DNA from: Chloroflexota bacterium
Lineage (GTDB): Bacteria > Chloroflexota > Dehalococcoidia > Lucifugimonadales > Lucifugimonadaceae
Direction of reading: 5' to 3'
Assembly (NCBI GenBank): GCA_009838175.1
Contig: VXSB01000026.1
Span: 1 to 37,997, forward strand
Length of the DNA: 37,997 nucleotides
The first letter of the stretch is position 1. Every line of letters starts with the position of its first letter. The notes under the pieces were generated by a model that worked only from the letters and a program-made list of their open reading frames with translations, had not been told where the DNA came from and made no database searches. This document shows, in pieces, positions 9,328-24,952 of the stretch. The translations under genes were made by a program, and so were the position numbers.

Positions 9328-10377
9328 ATGAGTGAAAAGGTCCCGCGGCTAACGGAGCTCGCCAGCTGCGCCGGTTGAGCAGGCAAGCTTAGCCAAGGCG
9401 AACTCGCCCAGGTTTTGGGCGGGCTGATGAATGGAGCCGTTCCACACCCTGATTTGTTGGTCGGCTTCGAACACGGTGACGATGCTGCCGTCTACCGTTT
9501 GGACGAGCGCGTCGCGTTAGTGCTGACAGTCGATTTCTTCGCGCCGATCGTCGACGACCCTTTCACGTATGGTGCGATTGCGGCGGCGAACTCGATGTCG
9601 GATGTATACGCGATCGGTGGTCTACCGATCACGGCTTTGAATGTGGCGGCGTTTCCACGATCTTTGCCGTTCGAAGTGTCTGCCGAGATACTGCGTGGTG
9701 GTGCCGCGAAGGTTGCAGAGGCGGGAGCGATGATCGTTGGCGGGCACACGGTGGATGATGTGGAGCCAAAGTATGGGTTGTCGGTGGTCGGTGTTGTTGA
9801 GCCGGGGCGACAGGTCCAGAATTCGACTGCTGAGTCCGGCGATGTTTTGGTTTTGACTAAGCCGTTAGGCACTGGTGTTGTTACCACGGCGCTCAAGAAC
9901 GGTAAAGCGTTGGGCGAGGTTTTGAATGCCGCGGTCGAAACGATGCTGAGGTTGAACCGCGACGCGGCAGAGGCGATGGTGTCGGCTGGGGCTCATGCGG
10001 CGACGGATGTTACCGGGTTCGGGATTGTTGGTCACTTGATGACAATGATGCGGGCGAGCGGTACGACGGGGCGGTTGAGGCGGTCTGCGCTGCCGGTTTT
10101 GCCGGGCGTTGTGGAGCTATTGGAGGATGGGATTGCACCGGGCGGCACGTATCGGAACTTGGAGAGTTGCGCCGAGAGCGTGACTTGGTCGGAGGATATC
10201 GGCGAAATAGACCGGTTGCTGATGTGCGATCCTCAGACTTCCGGTGGTTTGCTGATCTCGGTGGCAGAAGGGGCAGTTGACGGATTGCTGGCGGATCTCA
10301 GTGGGCGCGGGGTAGTCGGCACGGTTGTTGGTGAGGTGACGGCGTTTACTGGCAGCGCGGTGGAAGTTACGGGTTAG
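9328..10377 (+). CDS. selD: Selenide water dikinase, selenocysteine-containing (in-frame TGA at 9376)
   Basis: SelD makes selenophosphate, the selenium donor, from selenide and ATP. Without TGA readthrough the frame opens only at a TTG at 9415 and lacks the catalytic N-terminus. Reading from ATG 9328 through TGA 9376-9378 gives 349 residues beginning MSEKVPRLTELASCAG, then U17-A-G-K20. Position 17 matches catalytic Cys17 and Lys20 matches Lys20 of E. coli SelD, in register. Downstream are GDDAAVY, TVDFFAPIVDDPF and AAANSMSDVYAIGG, all family signatures. A SECIS-like stem-loop lies at 9403-9423. Cys/Sec variation at this site is established for SelD. The 3' end overlaps convergent mazG. Confidence 0.95.
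9403..9423 (+). promoter_or_regulatory. Bacterial SECIS-like stem-loop in selD
   Basis: CTCGCCCA (9403-9410) pairs with TGGGCGGG (9416-9423) over 8 bp, with one T-G wobble, closing a five-nucleotide loop GGTTT. The stem begins 24 nt and the loop 32 nt after the TGA at 9376-9378. Bacterial SECIS elements recognised by SelB lie just 3' of the UGA inside the coding region and usually have G-G-U in the apical loop, as here. It is coding sequence as well. Confidence 0.75.
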
Positions 10378-11923: not shown

Positions 11924-12643
11924 GTGACCAAATTTCAAAATCTCGGCGCGTCTGGATGGAGTATGCTCGCGCTCGGCGTTGTGTTCGCTGTGCTGTTGCC
12001 GATATTCCTAATCGCTGTCAACGTCGTTTACATAACCGATTCGGACTGGCTTTACACGTATAACTGGTGGCGCAACGGGGTCTCGGAGCGGATAGGGTTG
12101 CCGGTGTCAGAACTGGATTCTGCGGCTGATCAGATCAAGGAGTACTTCGCGAACGATGCCGAGCGTCTAGATGTTCGGGTCAACACATCGCGAGGGATAG
12201 TCAGCCTGTTTGATGAACGCGAGACCCTCCACATGATCGATGTGAAGGATTTGATGCGTTACGTTGCTGCGGTGTCGGTTTGGAGCGGCGTCGGTTTGGT
12301 GCTTTGCACGGCGTTAGGGCTGGCGATTCGTCGCCGTGAATTCTTCGCATCGATGTCGCGGTGGTTGAGATGGTGCGCGTTGGTGTGGGGACTCATCATT
12401 GCCGCTGTGGTGGTGATTGCGATCATCGACTTCACGTGGATATTCACACAGTTCCACTTGCTTAGTTTCGCCAATGATCTTTGGCAACTAGATCCGTTCC
12501 GACACTACCTGTTACTGCTGTTCCCTGAACGGTTCTTCTTAGAGGCGACCTTGTTTATCGCCTTGTTGACGGTGATTGAGTTTGCTGGACTCTACGTAGG
12601 GGCGCGATTGGTGGAGATTCGGTTTTCGCGTGATCAGTCGTAG
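11924..12643 (+). CDS. DUF1461/TIGR01906 family integral membrane protein
   Basis: The 239-residue protein has hydrophobic segments at about 15-38, 108-130, 145-170 and 200-225. Between the first two is an extracytoplasmic domain with SELDSAADQIKEYFANDAE and LFDERETLHMIDVKDLM, matching the DUF1461 pattern (…YF…LF…RE…HM.DVK). The start is a GTG preceded by a short gap from the TM2 gene. The 3' end overlaps convergent apt by 10 nt. Function unknown. Confidence 0.82.
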   Translation: MTKFQNLGASGWSMLALGVVFAVLLPIFLIAVNVVYITDSDWLYTYNWWRNGVSERIGLPVSELDSAADQIKEYFANDAERLDVRVNTSRGIVSLFDERETLHMIDVKDLMRYVAAVSVWSGVGLVLCTALGLAIRRREFFASMSRWLRWCALVWGLIIAAVVVIAIIDFTWIFTQFHLLSFANDLWQLDPFRHYLLLLFPERFFLEATLFIALLTVIEFAGLYVGARLVEIRFSRDQS

Positions 12644-13170
12644 ACGATGTGGGCGACGACTTCGCAATCGGGGTCGCGGTTTGTGATACGTTCGCGACCG
12701 TCCAAATACGCGAGTTCGACCAAGAAAATCTGCGCTACGACATAGGTGCCAAGCTCTTCGGCGAGTTCTGCCGCCGCGACCGCGGTTCCACCAGTCGCGA
12801 GCAGGTCGTCAATGATGACGATGCGCTGACCTTTGCTAAGAGCGTCTGACCTCATCTCGATAGCCGAAAGGTCTTCGTATTCCAAAGAGTATTGGTTTCT
12901 GATGACTGGCGGTGGCAACTTGCCGCTCTTCCTTACTAGTGCGAGCGGAATGCCCAGCCGGTCGGCTACTGGCGATGCGAACACGAAACCTCTGGCATCG
13001 ATCGCTGCAATGACATCGGGATCGCGTTTTAGCACCTGATCGTCAAACCAGTTGATGGCGGCACGAAAAGCCGCGGGTTCGGCGAAGATGGGGGTCAAGT
13101 CTTTGAATTGGATCCCTGGTTTAGGGTGATCTGGAACATCGCGAATCCAGCCCCTTAGATCGACGCTCAT
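12634..13170 (-). CDS. apt: Adenine phosphoribosyltransferase
   Basis: The 178-residue enzyme salvages adenine to AMP using PRPP. The PRPP-binding loop IDDLLATGGTA spans about 120-130, with DARGFVFA (58-65) and the flexible-loop region KSGKLPPPV (81-89) as further Apt signatures. Its ATG overlaps the TGA stop of the upstream DUF3179 gene (ATGA, 13167-13170), indicating an operon; the link between the two functions is not obvious. Confidence 0.95.
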   Translation of the reverse strand: MSVDLRGWIRDVPDHPKPGIQFKDLTPIFAEPAAFRAAINWFDDQVLKRDPDVIAAIDARGFVFASPVADRLGIPLALVRKSGKLPPPVIRNQYSLEYEDLSAIEMRSDALSKGQRIVIIDDLLATGGTAVAAAELAEELGTYVVAQIFLVELAYLDGRERITNRDPDCEVVAHIVYD

Positions 13171-14372
13171 TGCCCGTATATCTCCGTTTCAGGATAGAAA
13201 TCGCTCCATGCGAACCAGAATACGTTAACGGCATGAACCGGATCGAGCCGAGTGCCTTGGAAATCGCCACTCCATGCTTGGCCGTTTAGGGGCAACCATC
13301 TGGATCCGGAGGCATCGACCAGCCATCGCCTTGACACTCCTTCGCCTTCTTCCTCGATTTCAAGCGAAAACTCCAATGTCTCTTCGCCAACCGATCTGGA
13401 GTAGGCAATTGCAGTGCTGGTTTGCGATTCGTAGTAGACGACAACCGGCTCACCGTTGATCTCGGTGTTTATCACCTGCTCTTCTTGCAGAGCGGTATGC
13501 GGAAACGCTATTGCTCCGTCATCGAAACCAGCTCCGAGCACGATCTCTTTGCCGTATAGGCGTTCGTCGCGATTTGATTCGCCGATAACTCCGGCATCGT
13601 CGCGTATGTAATAGCTGGTGTAGGGATCAAAGCTGGACTCGCCTTTGAGCAGTGCTTTGGTCTCCGGGAAGGATGTTCGCCACTCTTCCCAAGTTGTGAG
13701 CACCAGCGGTACGTTGGTCAGCTTGACACCCTTGTATTCACCCTCGATGCCTTCGGAGAGGAAGTGGCTCCAAAGCGAACGCGTCTGACGGTCGTACATG
13801 ATGAGAGCGTTCATGGTGAGTTTGCCCGAGACGCCGAATGTCAGCGTCTCCCCGGTTACCTCTCTGGAATACCCGATTCCAGTGAAGCAGAGCGGTCACC
13901 AAGTGACCGCGATGGGCTTGCCTCCGACAACATCATTGACGATCTCGTGACTGCTTAGCAGAGGGACTGAATAGGCACGAGCATCGCCGTCGATCTCGAC
14001 ACCAAGGACCAACTCGCCATCGTTGTAGAACATGTTGGCGGTTTCGAGGTCTGGGAAGAAGTGCGGGTTGTCTATAGCTGGTATTCCATCGAATGGCAGC
14101 AGTGTCACGATGTCTAAGTCACGTTCAGGAGCAGTCGCGGCCACGGGTTCTTCGGTGGGTGTCGGAGGTTCAGTGGCTGCTGGCGTCGGAGTCGGTTCCG
14201 GCGGCTGGGTTGGCTTCGGCTGAGTAGCCTCGACTTCCGGCGGGCTTGTGGCTGTAGGAACAAGCGGCTCCGATTCGGGAGTAACGGTCGGCGGTTCGAC
14301 GGTTTCCGATCCACAGGCGGTGAGAATCAAGACCAACACGAGTGCGCTGATGACTATCTGAACTTTGCACAT
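13167..14372 (-). CDS. DUF3179 lipoprotein, predicted selenoprotein with UPLC motif (in-frame TGA at 13896)
   Basis: Two abutting open frames (14372-13896 and 13814-13167) are one 401-residue gene in a single frame, interrupted only by TGA at 13898-13896. Readthrough gives AVTW-U159-PLC162-FTGIGYSREV, then GETLTFGVSGKLTMNALIMYDR. DUF3179 proteins normally have a CPLC motif here, so TGA replaces a conserved Cys. A SECIS-like hairpin follows at 13882-13864. The N-terminus is a lipoprotein signal with lipobox LTAC (Cys20), followed by a Pro/Thr-rich linker to about residue 80. I infer an exported, membrane-anchored protein with a U-x-x-C redox motif; I see no other Cys in the mature domain apart from the lipidated one. 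Family function is unknown. The 3' end is coupled to apt. Confidence 0.88.
13864..13882 (-). promoter_or_regulatory. Bacterial SECIS-like stem-loop in the DUF3179 gene
   Basis: On the minus strand CTGGAAT and ATTCCAG form a perfect 7-bp stem around the loop CGGGT. The stem starts 13 nt after the TGA, close to the 11-nt spacing in E. coli fdhF, and the loop contains G-G-U. Beyond one A-A mismatch the stem can be extended by about five more pairs, including wobbles. This position and shape match bacterial SECIS elements. Confidence 0.8.
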
Positions 14373-19206: not shown

Positions 19207-21669
19207 CTACGACTCTCCCCAAACTCGCCCCATAACATCCCGTATCTTCCCCTCCATGCGCTCAATCAAAGACACGTTTGCGTCTACTAGCGATTGTTCT
19301 GCTGTCAAGTCACGTGTTATGGCTTGTTGCGTCTCTAGATCAGGTAATGGCATTCTAATACGTTTCAAAACTCTGCCCGAGACAAAGTTGAACGACGTCT
19401 TGCCCGAAAGCCGAATCAACTCGTCCTTAAACTGAGCGGACATTCGAAAAAGGAATTCTGGATCAAGCACGGGGCGGGCTTCCTGCTTGACCACCAACCC
19501 GTTAAATTGCTGGTTCGTAGTCAGCGGGATTTCGGAGATCGCGTACTCACCGACAGACGCCGTACAACACAAAAGCACTGTCTTCGGTGGCAACAGCCTC
19601 AGACTGGATTCATGTAATGCGGCTTTACTTATGGATTGCTGTGTCCTATCGATACGTCGGCCGATCTGGCGAATATCGTTGACCGTAAACCATGGAACAT
19701 CATTGGCATCCCAATACCGCGGTTCTTTGCGCGACGGCGTTGAACCGTTGATCACATCACACACCTCCCCCAACTCCACCACCGGCCACTCCGGATCAAC
19801 CGCAATCCCCGGACGCCAATTCTCAACAACTGCACGCGCCCCATCAATAACCCTCTGATAACCCTCAATCTCCGAAACAATCTCACGCTGAACTTCCAAC
19901 GATGGTAGGGGGATGTCAATGTTTTCGAAACGTCCCTTGGTGATGTGCCGCATCGTGTTGCCGTGTACATTTTCGGTAATCGCGGCTGAAATCTGATCCT
20001 TGCAGTAATACAGATACTTCTTGAGAATGGCTTCATTTGGTGCCACTCTGAAGATGTGCTGATTTAACACGGCATCATCATCATCCCAAATGAAAAACCC
20101 GATGGTTGCCGACCAAGAAATCAATAGATCACCGCGTTTTACCACGTATTTTTCGAGTATGTCCTGGCGAGTCGTGAAATTGTATTTGCTTGAAGTGCCG
20201 GTCAAGTTTTGGATACGGATTATTTTGCGTCCTTCTTGCTCCCAATCCGATGGTTTGAACGCCATTCCATTGATGTACTCAGCGACATCACCCAACTTTG
20301 CCATTGGAAAACGACCCGCAGTAACAACACTGACTCGATACCGTTCCCCGCTCAGGTTGTAGTCACCGTCTTCACCGACCCTAGATTTCTCAACCACCAT
20401 GCCAGTTGAAGGCATGAACTCCCCAATGCCATCTCCCTCCCGGACACGACGCAGATACTCCACCACCTCAGTCTTCACACGCGGCAGATCATTCTGATCA
20501 ATCTCCCGTCGCTGCGCACCAAGATCAAACCCATCATTCTCAACCTTGAAAAAACCGATGGTTTCCGACCGCCGAGCCAACGACTTGTCAAGTATCAAGA
20601 TCGAAGTCTTAACCCCGGAATACGGATTGAAAACCCCCGGAGGCAACGAAACCACCGCAACGAGATAGTCCTCGACCAGCATCTTACGCAGCTGCTTGTG
20701 CGCGTTCTGACTCTGGAAAATGATCCCCTCCGGAACAATCACTCCGGCCCGACCTTCAGGCGTCAGATGCTCAGCGATGTAATCCACGAACAGAACCTCG
20801 CTACGCCGCGAAGTAACGCTGAATCGGTTATGCGGACGTATCCCACCCTTCGGCGACATAAACGGCGGATTGGCCAAAATCACGTTCGCATATTCGTTCC
20901 ATCGCTCCTCGCTAGTGAGGGTGTCATACTCGAATACGTCCGGGTCTGGGAAGCGGTGCAAGTAGAGATTGACCAACGAAAGTCGGACCATGTCAGGGGA
21001 GATGTCATACCCGCTGACGTTGCCTGCGAGCCTAGTGCGTTCGTCCGAAGTTAACGGCGAATCGGCATCCAGGTTCGACTTCATGATGTGCTTGTAAGCC
21101 GAAATCAGGAAGCCCGCGGTACCGCACGCCGGATCTAGGATGATGTCGTCCTTCTTAGGATCGACGATCTCCACGATGAAATCGATGATGTGCCGCGGCG
21201 TCCGGAACTGCCCCGCATCTCCCTGCGAACCCATGATCGACAGCAGATACTCAAACGCATCCCCTAAACGCTCCGAGTTGTCATATTCAAACTCGTCAAT
21301 CACCCCTAGAAACGCCCGCAAAGTCTCAGGGTCCCGAAACGGCAGGTAGGCATTGTTGAAGATCGACCGGAACAGCACCGGCAACCCCGGATTCTCGCCC
21401 ATCCGCGTGATGCCCTCCGAATAGAGGTTCAGCGCATCAAACGCCCCAATCCCACGCCCCACAATCTTCCGCCAAGAGTACCGACCAAAATCCCCTACAA
21501 AAAACGAAGCACTACCACCAAACTCCTCCGCCAGCGCGTCCATGTCATCCATGAACTTGTACATAAGAGCCAAAGTGATCTGCTCAACCTGACTCTTAGG
21601 GTCCGGAACCTTCCCAACAAGTATGTCTCGAGCTGTATCAATCCGCTGCCGCGTCTGAACGTCTAACAC
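19207..21669 (-). CDS. Type I restriction-modification: fused HsdM-HsdS
   Basis: An 820-residue fusion of modification and specificity subunits. Residues about 1-420 are an N6-adenine methylase with SAM motif DPACGTAGF (179-187) and catalytic NPPF (267-270). From about 455 there are two target-recognition domains: KLGDVAEYINGMAFKPSDW to about 590, then ELGEVCDVINGSTPSRKEPRYW from about 632. Helical spacers follow each (QREIVSEIEGYQRVIDGA and QQAITRDLTAEQSLVD). HsdM and HsdS are usually separate, so this resembles single-chain type I or type IIG-like designs, but a separate HsdR is encoded upstream. It is the last gene of hsdR-antitoxin-toxin-hsdMS. Confidence 0.93.
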   Translation of the reverse strand: MLDVQTRQRIDTARDILVGKVPDPKSQVEQITLALMYKFMDDMDALAEEFGGSASFFVGDFGRYSWRKIVGRGIGAFDALNLYSEGITRMGENPGLPVLFRSIFNNAYLPFRDPETLRAFLGVIDEFEYDNSERLGDAFEYLLSIMGSQGDAGQFRTPRHIIDFIVEIVDPKKDDIILDPACGTAGFLISAYKHIMKSNLDADSPLTSDERTRLAGNVSGYDISPDMVRLSLVNLYLHRFPDPDVFEYDTLTSEERWNEYANVILANPPFMSPKGGIRPHNRFSVTSRRSEVLFVDYIAEHLTPEGRAGVIVPEGIIFQSQNAHKQLRKMLVEDYLVAVVSLPPGVFNPYSGVKTSILILDKSLARRSETIGFFKVENDGFDLGAQRREIDQNDLPRVKTEVVEYLRRVREGDGIGEFMPSTGMVVEKSRVGEDGDYNLSGERYRVSVVTAGRFPMAKLGDVAEYINGMAFKPSDWEQEGRKIIRIQNLTGTSSKYNFTTRQDILEKYVVKRGDLLISWSATIGFFIWDDDDAVLNQHIFRVAPNEAILKKYLYYCKDQISAAITENVHGNTMRHITKGRFENIDIPLPSLEVQREIVSEIEGYQRVIDGARAVVENWRPGIAVDPEWPVVELGEVCDVINGSTPSRKEPRYWDANDVPWFTVNDIRQIGRRIDRTQQSISKAALHESSLRLLPPKTVLLCCTASVGEYAISEIPLTTNQQFNGLVVKQEARPVLDPEFLFRMSAQFKDELIRLSGKTSFNFVSGRVLKRIRMPLPDLETQQAITRDLTAEQSLVDANVSLIERMEGKIRDVMGRVWGES

Positions 21670-21690
21670 GATCTATCTCCCTTTATCCCT

Positions 21691-22083
21691 TCAAGCCGTT
21701 TCAAGTTCAATATCAGCGATCCGTTCGAAATGCCGACGATTGTTTGTGAGCACCGTCAAATCGTGAATCACCGCGGTACAACCGATCAACAGATCAAAAT
21801 CACCGATCAACGTCCCTGCGGACCGCAATCTTGCACGTTCGAAACCGAACAATTTGCAGATGTCGTCTCTCAAACCCAAGACCTCGAAGCCGCCTAGCAA
21901 ACGAAGAAACGCCAACTCTTCCGCGGTCTGATCCGGCGATTGCGATATCCCTTCGTACACCTCGGCAAGCGTCACGATACTCACCGCCACACCGTCGTCT
22001 CTGACCCGGTCTAATCGCTCGCAGATGTTGTCGTCGCCGTTCAGGTAATGGATCACCCAGTCTGTGTCGACCAGATATCTCAT
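21691..22083 (-). CDS. PIN-domain toxin (VapC-like)
   Basis: A 130-residue PIN-domain ribonuclease. Acidic residues expected for metal binding are Asp6 (LVDTDWV), Glu41 in LAEVYEG, and Asp96/Asp99 in GDFDLLIG. It begins within the antitoxin stop codon (ATGA overlap at 22080-22083), the usual layout of a type II toxin-antitoxin pair. It lies inside a restriction operon between hsdR and hsdMS, where it could act as an addiction element for the locus. Confidence 0.9.
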   Translation of the reverse strand: MRYLVDTDWVIHYLNGDDNICERLDRVRDDGVAVSIVTLAEVYEGISQSPDQTAEELAFLRLLGGFEVLGLRDDICKLFGFERARLRSAGTLIGDFDLLIGCTAVIHDLTVLTNNRRHFERIADIELETA

Positions 22084-22328
22084 TCCGCGTCGTCGGCAAA
22101 CATGTGCGCAGAACCTTGAATACGGGCTCTATACAGGTCAGCAATCCGCTTATCCGCATCAACCTTGCCCCTCCACGCACCTGCCGAAGACCTGCTCACC
22201 TCAACATCCTTAGCAGTGATACGACGCCCCGAGATCGTGACAACAACCACGTCTCCCTCGTCCAAATCAAGCGCCTTCGTAGGTTTGAGAAAACCATCCT
22301 CGTACTTGGCTGTCACTGTTTGTGCCAT
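22080..22328 (-). CDS. Antitoxin, AF2212-like (DUF104) family
   Basis: An 82-residue protein starting MAQTVTAKYEDGFLKPTKAL. The Tyr-Glu-x-Gly-x-Leu-Lys-Pro pattern followed by LDEGDVVVVTI is the AF2212-like/DUF104 antitoxin strand module. The acidic, polar C-terminus would wrap the toxin. The frame extends four residues upstream to 22340, and neither start has a clear ribosome-binding site. Its stop overlaps the PIN toxin start by 4 nt. Confidence 0.82.
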   Translation of the reverse strand: MAQTVTAKYEDGFLKPTKALDLDEGDVVVVTISGRRITAKDVEVSRSSAGAWRGKVDADKRIADLYRARIQGSAHMFADDAE

Positions 22329-22408
22329 CTCGTCGACCATCGTTGCTGGTAATGCCAGTACATCCGAGTATATGACCTCTAATTCCCATCTTTACACGTA
22401 CACCAGCG

Positions 22409-24952
22409 TCAAACAAACTGGTTCAAAACGACCCAATCCTTCACATACTCCCTGACCAACTCCCGATACTCCTCAGGAACACGCCCGTAATCCGCCAGCG
22501 AAAAACCCGCGTTAGTAGCCAAATCCGCAAAACTACCCCCATCCACGATAATCCGTACGCTCTCATCCCCCGCATACGCTACGAAGAACGCCTTGATCGC
22601 AGGTATCGATCCGACGTCTTCAGGGGCATGTTGCGCGATGAACTTCCCAAACTCCTCATCCAGCAACTCGGCCCTGCTCTTGATCTTCGGGATCAGTCCG
22701 AAGACGTGCTCCAGAATCTCTCGCAATGACACCCGGCGGTCCAGATTCAGCGCCTCCCTCAACTTATCGAGTGTGTAGTACTCTTCTGGCTTGTCGAAGA
22801 TCTGCTGCCGGACATAGTCCTGAGCCTTTTCCCAAGCCTCGTTTTCCACCGCCTCGCGCAACGTCTCATCCTTCTTCGCATCGTCCGCGAACCTGTTGAA
22901 CATCATTCGATCGACCTTCATTCCCACAGTCCCAATCTGCTCCTCCCGCAACGAATGAAGCTCGTCCTCTCCTAAGTAAGTGAACATGTTCAGCCGCTTT
23001 GTTACCGCGCCGTTTTCCGGACCGTCGTCCCCATTCTGCCCCTTGCTGATCGGCGGCAGCTTCAAAACCTCGTCATAGTCGTATTCGGTTTCGAAATACT
23101 CGTAATTCCCGAAAAAGTCGATCAGATTGAAAGACGTTTTCTCGGCGTTCGGCGATCCTTCCTTCAGGTACTTCTCGATCGCCTGATCCCGGAAATCGTG
23201 CTTGCGCGTACCCCGTCCCTTAATCTGTATGAAATCCGTCGGCGAAAAGATCGGACGCATCAAACCCAAGTTCAAGATATCCGGGCAATCGTAACCAGTT
23301 GTCATCATCCCCACTGTCACGCAGACCCTCGTCTTACTCGTCAAGTATCCCTCGATGAATTGGCTACGATCATTCAAGTTGTTGTTGGCGAAGTTCATCG
23401 CAAACCGTTGAGCCGTCGGAATCACCGACGTCACCTGCACCGCGAAATCAGACTGGTACCGCCCCGGAAACATCTGCATCGCAAACTCGTTCAGAATATT
23501 CGTCAGCTTCGCCGCATGACTCTGGCTCACGCAGAAAATAATCGACTTCCCGATCTCTTTGCTGATCGGATCCCTAAGAGCATGTTCGAGGAAAACGGCG
23601 CAGAACTCCTGATTCGTCGAGTCGGAAAAGAAAGTGCGCTCAAAATGACGGCGCTGCATCGTCGCCGTCGTCTCCTCGCCCTCCTCATCGGTAAACGTTA
23701 CGAGGAATCCCTGTTCCGACAACATCTCCGTCGAGACATCCGTTCTAGCATCCACCACCTTCGGATTGATCAAATGCCCGTCTTTCACTCCATCTAGCAA
23801 CGAATAACTGAAAGTCGGCCGTCCACTTTCGCAACCAAACGTGCGATACGTGTCCAGTAGCAGTCGCCGTTCCATCTCTCGAGGATCAAGGACCGACGCA
23901 TCACCCGCTTTCACGTTTCGCAGGTAATTGCGCGGCGTGGCGGTCAGCCCCAGCTTGTAACCCATAAAGTAGTTGAAAACATCCCGCGCATTCCCGTTGA
24001 TCGAACGGTGCGCCTCATCCGAAATCACGAGGTCGAAATCGGTAGGGGAGAACAGCTCGACGTATTTGTTGTTCACCAGCAACGACTGCACCGTTGTCAC
24101 CACAATTTCATGGCGACGCCAACCGCTCCGGTCGTCTTTGTAGATCACAGTCGAATAATCGGGTTTGAGATAATCTTCGAACGCCCGCTTGGCCTGATTC
24201 TCAAGTTCCAACCTGTCGACTAGGAACAGTACCCTCGACGCATTCCCCGTCCGCAAAAACAGCTTGATGATCGCAGCCGCCACCAACGTCTTGCCCGTTC
24301 CCGTAGCCATCTCAAACAGGAAACGATCATTGCCACGCTTCACTGCACGCTGGATCGACTTCACCGCATTCACCTGATACTCCCGCATCAAACGCAACCC
24401 ATTCACCCGCATGAACTCGTCGCGTTCATCTTCGTTGATCCAACCCGCTCGAAGCTTGTAATCCGGCATCTTCGTCTTCATGATGTAATCCGCATTCACC
24501 GCCTCATCCACCAAACGCCCTCGATCCGGCGGTTGACGCTTCACTATCTCACCGACACTCTCTGGCCGAGGAAACTCCGTGATTGTCGAAGGATTACCCT
24601 GCTCAACGTCCCAGAAGTAATGCAAATGACCGTTTGACAAAATTACGTATCGGCAATTCTTCCGCCGCGCGTATGACCTAGCCTGCTCTTTGCCCACCAA
24701 TGGCTGCTTGCTGGCCGACTTCGCTTCCAACACCACCAACGGACGTCCACGTTCATCTACTAGCAAATAATCGACAAATCCCCTCCCCACATTCTCGAAA
24801 TCATCACCCATCGCGTCCAACTCCGCCTGCCCACTGACCTTCGACTCCAAATGAATATTCCCCAGTCTCCCATCTTCATCAAAGAAACGCCAACCAGACC
24901 TCTCCAACATCTGATTGATCCTGATCCGCGCCGTCGCTTCGTTATCCGGCAC
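22409..24952 (-). CDS. hsdR: Type I restriction enzyme R subunit
   Basis: The 847-residue motor and nuclease subunit. An N-terminal PD-(D/E)xK nuclease is seen as Asp61 (FVDYLLV) and Glu76-Ala-Lys78 (VLEAKSA). The superfamily 2 translocase follows with Walker A ATGTGKT (216-222), DEAH (312-315), LGLTATP and, in the second RecA-like domain, KGRGTRKHD. The C-terminal helical region would bind the methylase. The start is GTG with only weak GGA upstream. Downstream come a toxin-antitoxin pair and hsdMS on the same strand. Length is shorter than EcoKI HsdR but in the range of the smaller subfamily. Confidence 0.94.
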   Translation of the reverse strand: MPDNEATARIRINQMLERSGWRFFDEDGRLGNIHLESKVSGQAELDAMGDDFENVGRGFVDYLLVDERGRPLVVLEAKSASKQPLVGKEQARSYARRKNCRYVILSNGHLHYFWDVEQGNPSTITEFPRPESVGEIVKRQPPDRGRLVDEAVNADYIMKTKMPDYKLRAGWINEDERDEFMRVNGLRLMREYQVNAVKSIQRAVKRGNDRFLFEMATGTGKTLVAAAIIKLFLRTGNASRVLFLVDRLELENQAKRAFEDYLKPDYSTVIYKDDRSGWRRHEIVVTTVQSLLVNNKYVELFSPTDFDLVISDEAHRSINGNARDVFNYFMGYKLGLTATPRNYLRNVKAGDASVLDPREMERRLLLDTYRTFGCESGRPTFSYSLLDGVKDGHLINPKVVDARTDVSTEMLSEQGFLVTFTDEEGEETTATMQRRHFERTFFSDSTNQEFCAVFLEHALRDPISKEIGKSIIFCVSQSHAAKLTNILNEFAMQMFPGRYQSDFAVQVTSVIPTAQRFAMNFANNNLNDRSQFIEGYLTSKTRVCVTVGMMTTGYDCPDILNLGLMRPIFSPTDFIQIKGRGTRKHDFRDQAIEKYLKEGSPNAEKTSFNLIDFFGNYEYFETEYDYDEVLKLPPISKGQNGDDGPENGAVTKRLNMFTYLGEDELHSLREEQIGTVGMKVDRMMFNRFADDAKKDETLREAVENEAWEKAQDYVRQQIFDKPEEYYTLDKLREALNLDRRVSLREILEHVFGLIPKIKSRAELLDEEFGKFIAQHAPEDVGSIPAIKAFFVAYAGDESVRIIVDGGSFADLATNAGFSLADYGRVPEEYRELVREYVKDWVVLNQFV

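What the first reader, a model, noticed from the sequence alone, without database searches (positions are those of the whole stretch)
13167..14372. DUF3179 lipoprotein as a selenoprotein: TGA replaces the first Cys of the CPLC motif
Two frames that look like a broken gene are in one phase, separated only by a TGA at the position of the conserved Cys of the family motif, giving U-P-L-C. Homology continues uninterrupted on both sides. A perfect 7-bp hairpin with loop CGGGU starts 13 nt after the TGA. The protein carries a lipobox (LTAC) and Pro/Thr-rich linker, so selenocysteine would sit outside the membrane in a U-x-x-C redox motif. I do not recall a described selenoprotein of this family, but I could not search for one. 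Because the family has no known function, replacement of this one Cys by Sec marks it as the likely catalytic residue.
Basis: partly seen in the sequence, partly recalled or inferred. Interest (0 to 1): 0.92.

Follow-up and report, generated by a model that had tools for sequence, protein, structure and literature searches.

The report
SAR202-type DUF3179 selenoprotein with SECIS hairpin
This bacterial gene of unknown function carries an in-frame TGA stop codon that is predicted to be read as selenocysteine, at the very spot where many related proteins carry cysteine; the family is already listed in reviews as a selenoprotein family, so this is a new member rather than a new kind.

Summary
One frame (window 14372-13167, minus) encodes a DUF3179 protein (278.8 bits, cut-off 27) interrupted by one TGA at residue 159, in T-W-U-P-L-C. 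In 203 distinct DUF3179 frames that I fetched (enriched for TGA hits), 107 have TGA at that column, none TAA or TAG, and 84 have Cys. A hairpin meeting one criterion follows the codon in 103 of 107 TGA genes but 4 of 84 Cys genes, with compensatory changes. dN/dS is low on both sides where measurable. The genome has selA, selB, tRNA-Sec(UCA) and, in this window, selD, itself with a TGA. Sec insertion is very likely; no protein was measured. The novelty claim fails: two reviews list DUF3179 (UxxC/T) as a selenoprotein family, citing a 2007 study. Not seen in my paper searches: Chloroflexota/SAR202-type members, six TGA copies in one genome, at least seven Sec/Cys exchanges, hairpin covariation, and a predicted fold of two Rieske-like repeats without the Rieske cluster motif, the Sec-x-x-Cys pair on a turn of repeat 1. 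Most likely mechanism (inferred): an exported, membrane-anchored selenol/thiol redox protein with Sec159 and Cys162 as redox pair.

The parts
13167..14372 (-). DUF3179 gene, predicted selenoprotein of 401 aa with Sec at 159, terminal stop TGA
   Evidence: translation; PF11376, 278.8 bits
13896..13898 (-). in-frame TGA, predicted Sec159 codon
   Evidence: TGA at the same column in 107 distinct frames
13864..13882 (-). predicted bacterial SECIS hairpin, 7 bp stem, loop CGGGU, starting 13 nt after the TGA
14313..14372 (-). N-terminal hydrophobic segment with lipobox LTAC (residues 1-20)
   Evidence: read from the translation; no signal-peptide program was run
13665..14090 (-). repeat 1 (residues 95-236), holds Sec159 and Cys162
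   Evidence: hhalign repeat 1 against repeat 2, E 1.2e-33; model of residues 85-248
13179..13589 (-). repeat 2 (residues 262-398), no Cys pair (E-S-Q-T at the matching place)
9328..10377 (+). selD, selenophosphate synthetase, itself with TGA at codon 17 (CAGUAGK)
9376..9378 (+). in-frame TGA of selD, predicted Sec17
12634..13170 (-). apt, overlaps the end of the DUF3179 gene by 4 bases (ATGA)
   Evidence: its homologue recurs in 9 of the 35 related loci compared

Best explanation
This gene most likely encodes a selenoprotein: its in-frame UGA is predicted to be decoded as selenocysteine with the help of the hairpin that follows it, giving a Sec-x-x-Cys pair in a DUF3179 protein. Shown: the TGA, the column where TGA and Cys codons alternate, the conserved and covarying hairpin sequence, purifying selection past the TGA, and the Sec machinery genes in the genome. 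Inferred: SelB and tRNA-Sec bring Sec to the UGA; the protein is exported and lipid-anchored, so that the domain sits outside the cytoplasmic membrane; Sec159 is the redox-active nucleophile and Cys162 the resolving thiol, cycling through a selenenyl-sulfide bond on a beta-hairpin turn of the first of two Rieske-like repeats. The substrate and the electron donor are not known.
For: Column: 107 TGA, 84 Cys, 12 Ser/Ala/Trp, 0 TAA or TAG in 203 distinct frames. Exchange: at least 7 U/C changes on a FastTree tree with the motif columns removed; one tandem pair (L122) has TGA in one copy and TGT in the other. Hairpin: 103 of 107 TGA genes against 4 of 84 Cys genes meet one criterion; hairpin score against synonymous-codon shuffles, mean z 2.09 in TGA genes and -0.04 in Cys genes, Mann-Whitney p 1.3e-24. 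Covariation: 52 sequences, 97.8% of cells paired, 66 cells changed on both sides, 0 of 500 shuffles reach either; second register, 34 sequences, 93.7% and 28 cells, 0 of 500. Selection: dN/dS 0.023 to 0.058 downstream of the TGA in 4 of 6 comparisons; in the other 2 dS was saturated. Machinery: selA 518.8 bits, selB 331.9, selD 367.3, tRNA-Sec 68.2 bits with anticodon TCA. TGA is not reassigned in general: it ends 5 of 14 window genes examined. Pairing of 159 with 162: Fisher p 1.6e-12.
Against: No protein, peptide or selenium data. The hairpin criterion was my own, set after looking at the sequences. 4 of 107 TGA genes fail it (from the scores: one copy each of L109 and L111, and L164, L169). 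Plain folding energy separates the groups less (mean z -1.13 against -0.15). Sequences were sorted into the two registers by their own best hairpin, so the percentage paired is partly built in; two measures are weaker: pairs changed on both sides are reached by 18 and 1 of 500 shuffles, further pair types by 104 and 192. A redox role is inferred from the motif. My crude lipobox pattern matched 10 of 47 TGA frames with a complete upstream frame (34 more have a hydrophobic stretch alone, 3 neither) and 49 of 70 such Cys frames, so a lipid anchor is not a family rule. One TGA frame (L110) has Arg at 162. Z to Rieske domains is about 8, which the tool calls middling.
Confidence: 0.85

Rival explanations
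1. Sec159 and Cys162, with His142, bind a metal ion instead of cycling as a redox pair; CPLC then works like a rubredoxin or zinc knuckle.
For: The C-P-x-C turn between two strands looks like a metal knuckle (resemblance recalled, not tested). Adding up the table, His142 goes with the thiol pair: His in 174 of 193 rows with U or C at 159, Arg in 11 of the 12 rows without.
Against: 11 rows that keep U or C at 159 have Arg at 142, 10 of them with U, so His142 is not a fixed ligand. Only two Cys/Sec lie in the mature window protein besides the lipobox Cys, few for a metal site in a monomer.
Confidence: 0.2
2. The UGA is a true stop: the gene is a pseudogene or an assembly error, or only the C-terminal part is made from an internal start, as databases annotate it.
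For: 38 of the 120 listed database relatives (1584 in all) cover 57% of the query or less, among them the 20 closest; the 5 of these that I read are C-terminal pieces that start at M or V past the motif.
Against: 107 distinct frames share TGA at one codon; dN/dS is low past the TGA; the hairpin is nearly confined to TGA genes. The pieces that I read lack the first half of repeat 1, as expected if gene callers stop at TGA.
Confidence: 0.03
3. UGA is read as another amino acid (Trp or Cys) by a changed genetic code.
For: None found beyond the open frame.
Against: TGA ends 5 of 14 genes examined in the window, including this one; tRNA-Sec, selA, selB and selD are present.
Confidence: 0.02

Closest known systems
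DUF3179 domain-containing selenoprotein family (PF11376, UxxC/T), in the tables of PMC9312934 and PMC13188914; the first cites Zhang and Gladyshev 2007
   Same: Same Pfam family, same UxxC motif, predicted Sec
   Different: By its title the 2007 paper is on a deltaproteobacterial symbiont. 'Chloroflex', 'SAR202' and 'Dehalococc' do not occur in the 2026 review, nor 'Chloroflexi' and 'SAR202' in the 2022 one. Here: Chloroflexota, with several TGA copies in some genomes. The published sequences were not aligned to this one
Selenoprotein SelD
   Same: Predicted Sec in the same genome and window
   Different: Selenophosphate synthetase, another protein family
Rieske domains (ferredoxins of dioxygenases, NirD)
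   Different: No C-x-H...C-x-x-H cluster motif; no PF00355 row at E up to 10; profile comparison not significant; by interpolation the Sec/Cys pair lies on another turn than the cluster loops

Membership tests
Selenoprotein (UGA-decoded Sec) | in-frame UGA at a column where homologues have Cys | tested here: met
   107 TGA and 84 Cys at one column in 203 frames
Selenoprotein (UGA-decoded Sec) | bacterial SECIS-type hairpin just after the UGA | tested here: met
   predicted structure only, own criterion
Selenoprotein (UGA-decoded Sec) | selA, selB, selD and tRNA-Sec in the genome | tested here: met
Selenoprotein (UGA-decoded Sec) | Sec present in the protein | not testable with these tools
   needs mass spectrometry or 75-Se labelling
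DUF3179 (PF11376) | profile match over the curated cut-off | tested here: met
   278.8 bits against 27
Published Sec-DUF3179 family | motif UxxC/T | tested here: met
   UPLC; table entries seen
Published Sec-DUF3179 family | alignment to the published sequences | not tested
   accessions MBW1804167.1 and MDJ0986319.1 were not fetched
Rieske protein | Rieske fold | tested here: inconclusive
Rieske protein | C-x-H ... C-x-x-H [2Fe-2S] ligands | tested here: not met
   only two Cys/Sec in the mature window protein besides the lipobox Cys, as U-P-L-C; no PF00355 row
Thioredoxin-like redox protein | thioredoxin fold around CxxC | tested here: inconclusive
   no row named thioredoxin among those listed; absence from the list does not exclude it
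Bacterial lipoprotein | signal segment with lipobox Cys | tested here: met
   LTAC at residues 17-20, by eye; no dedicated predictor was run

The most novel reading that the evidence does not exclude
DUF3179 is a tandem Rieske-fold family that gave up the iron-sulfur cluster and carries a selenol/thiol redox pair on a different turn, and the SAR202-type Chloroflexota expanded it into several Sec-bearing exported paralogues, which would make it a leading surface selenoprotein family of these bacteria.
Probability: 0.4. Interest if true: 0.7.

Novelty: new member of a known kind. Interest (0 to 1): 0.5.

Why it matters
The residue that Sec replaces is the best pointer to the active site of a widespread family without known function. 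The repeated Sec/Cys exchange gives natural pairs for biochemistry, among them a tandem pair in one genome (L122). Many database entries near this gene are cut short (38 of 120 listed relatives), so selenoproteins of these lineages are easily overlooked.

Tried and rejected
1. Novelty of the family: rejected after finding it in two review tables. 2. First idea from the full-length fold search: that S140-x-H142-x16-U159-x-x-C162 mimics the Rieske motif spacing. Rejected: position 140 is not conserved, and both the residue ranges of the structural match (by my interpolation; no residue-level alignment is given) and the weak, non-significant profile alignment of repeat 2 put the pair on another turn than the cluster loops. 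3. Sequence search of solved structures: none for the protein; for the profile, 9 rows at E 0.015 or worse, which I take as chance. 4. Gene neighbours (apt, recF and others of the window) recur in 9 or fewer of the 35 related loci and say nothing on function. 5. One search covered 6S RNA (RF00013) by my mistake; tRNA-Sec was then searched. 6. RF01852 also hits ordinary tRNAs (the control rings in 14 of 14 genomes, over the cut-off in 5), so I rely on the 68.2-bit score and ARAGORN. 7. Rows dropped: 230 aligned rows became 203 after removing 15 without the motif column and copies with identical surroundings; two further stops lie in rows without the motif column (L194 TGA, L113 TAG). The tree used 201 rows, 189 of them U or C. 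A1 and A2 hold 52 and 34 distinct sequences out of 60 and 43 in their hairpin registers; 4 of the 107 TGA genes fell in neither. 8. Foldseek's top two rows by E-value for the full model are unrelated proteins at probability 0.08.

Full report
WHAT IS THERE. On the minus strand, window 14372-13167 is one frame of 402 codons, broken once by TGA at codon 159 and ended by TGA. The protein has an N-terminal hydrophobic segment with LTAC, a Pro/Thr-rich linker, and a DUF3179 domain (PF11376, 278.8 bits, positions 2-292 of 292). The TGA sits in T-W-U-P-L-C. Thirteen bases later a perfect 7-bp hairpin with loop CGGGU begins (the 49-nt stretch folds at -17.9 kcal/mol, z -1.84, 8 of 200 shuffles fold as well). 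The last codon overlaps the start of apt (ATGA).

SEC AND CYS IN ONE COLUMN. The same genome holds three DUF3179 matches: this gene, L002 (also one TGA at the same column, T-W-U-T-L-C) and L003 (Ser there, no stop). In 76 genomes of its family, 48 have DUF3179; I count at least 36 genomes with a TGA-bearing match in the listed rows (the list is cut). In 400 genomes drawn from the phylum, 81 have DUF3179; two of the listed matches have TAG instead. I fetched matches (those chosen almost all for their TGA, so the counts are not frequencies), aligned the six-frame translations to a profile, and kept 203 distinct frames. At the motif column: 107 TGA, 84 Cys, 10 Ser, 1 Ala, 1 Trp; no TAA or TAG. 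Interior stops elsewhere, leaving out 12 residues at each end of the aligned domain: 4 TGA and 3 TAG in 6 frames (L037, L113, L165, L167, L193, L194). On a FastTree tree without the motif columns, at least 7 changes between U and C are needed. In L122 two neighbouring copies differ: one TGA, one TGT. One genome (G034) has six TGA copies in the rows I fetched (L128, L139, L157, L169, L170, L181).

THE HAIRPIN. With one criterion (a G in the first three loop bases, loop starting 19-22 nt after the codon, stem of 5 or more, score of 13 or more) 103 of 107 TGA genes pass and 4 of 84 Cys genes do. I set the criterion after seeing the data. Against 100 synonymous-codon shuffles per gene, the hairpin score has mean z 2.09 in TGA genes and -0.04 in Cys genes; plain folding energy separates them less (mean z -1.13 and -0.15, p 1.4e-7). 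Two pairing registers exist; I sorted the sequences into them by their own best hairpin, so the share of paired cells is partly built in, while the compensatory changes are less so. Register 1 (52 distinct sequences, the window's included): 97.8% of cells paired, 66 cells changed on both sides, covariation score 0.457 against 0.098 shuffled, each reached by 0 of 500 shuffles; 5 of 7 pairs changed on both sides (18 of 500 reach it) and 9 further pair types (104 of 500 reach it). The best slid version has 55.8% paired and, at another slide, 18 such cells. Register 2 (34 sequences): 93.7%, 28 cells, 0.352 against 0.114, each 0 of 500; 5 of 7 pairs (1 of 500); further types 192 of 500. In L122 the TGA copy has a perfect stem (CTGGCAT/ATGCCAG); the best hairpin of the Cys copy lies elsewhere and scores 9. 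The Cys genes L196 and L197, nested among TGA genes in the tree, also have no hairpin at that place.

SELECTION AND MACHINERY. Between this gene and six genus relatives, dN/dS downstream of the TGA is 0.023 to 0.058 in the 4 comparisons where dS was not saturated; for the 85 codons upstream it was measurable in two (0.015 and 0). The genome has selA (518.8 bits, cut-off 267.9), selB (331.9, cut-off 242.25), selD (367.3, cut-off 125) and a tRNA-Sec (68.2 bits, cut-off 47; ARAGORN tRNA-SeC, anticodon TCA, L049 5745-5842). selD lies in this window (9328-10377) and itself has TGA at codon 17, in C-A-G-U-A-G-K. By my count, 34 of the 36 family genomes with a listed TGA match have selB over its cut-off; the two others (G001, G075) are 76% and 56% complete. 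TGA ends 5 of 14 window genes examined, so it is not reassigned in general.

WHO. Named relatives are MAGs called SAR202, Dehalococcoidia or Chloroflexi, the nearest 98% identical (L081), and more distantly Bacterium HR08 and HR10 (TGA copies) and a euryarchaeote MAG (Cys copies). One same-genus genome (G003) has a contig of the same length as that of SAR202 cluster bacterium bin127 (259923 bases).

WHAT IS KNOWN. Of the papers held, three contain DUF3179 and one PF11376. Two are reviews whose tables list 'DUF3179 domain-containing protein, UxxC/T' as a selenoprotein family (passages read); the 2022 one gives Zhang and Gladyshev 2007 as its reference, and the 2026 one its reference 60, which it uses elsewhere for the Olavius symbiont. 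The 2007 paper is not held. The third is a table entry in an Idiomarina paper. A search for SAR202 with selenoprotein found no paper; a broader one on Chloroflexi and selenocysteine gave 24, of which I saw the listing of 20. In PMC5029168, a 2016 survey of bacterial selenium use, a text search found neither Chloroflexi nor DUF3179. Most subscription journals are missing from this library, so absence there is weak evidence.

VERDICT. A selenoprotein gene by every computational check that I could run, a new member of a known kind, with a useful fold lead.

Noticed in passing
window 9328-10377 (+), TGA 9376-9378: selD is itself a predicted selenoprotein (Sec17), about 3 kb from the DUF3179 gene; a predicted hairpin with loop GGUUU follows (z -2.10, 7 of 200 shuffles fold as well).
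   Followed up: partly
window 13892-13910 (-): The TGA also lies in the stem of a second possible hairpin, GCGGTCAC-TTG-GTGACCGC; not checked in relatives.
   Followed up: no
L122 (G070:C25): Tandem DUF3179 copies, one with TGA and an intact hairpin, the other with TGT and none at that place: a natural Sec/Cys pair.
   Followed up: partly
L187 (G125:C31 102973-104793): Two TGA-bearing DUF3179 genes face each other, their domain matches 39 bases apart.
   Followed up: no
L003, L195, L205-L214: 12 DUF3179 frames with Ser, Ala or Trp at 159; 11 have Arg at 142 and 9 lack Cys at 162: perhaps non-redox branches.
   Followed up: partly
L109 and L111 (Bacterium HR10 and HR08): Two TGA-bearing DUF3179 genes in each of these loci of about 7 kb, among the most distant relatives found.
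   Followed up: no
G013:C6, G034:C4, G025:C56, G009:C22: Cys-type DUF3179 genes lie about 6 to 9 kb from selB in these four genomes.
   Followed up: no
window 19207-24952 (-): Type I restriction-modification-like genes (M/S-like and R-like, below the curated cut-offs).
   Followed up: no
window 11924-12643 (+): Lit, lipoprotein intramolecular transacylase, two genes away from this predicted lipoprotein.
   Followed up: no
L110: A TGA frame with U-P-L-R instead of U-P-L-C, the single exception at 162; may be a sequencing error.
   Followed up: no
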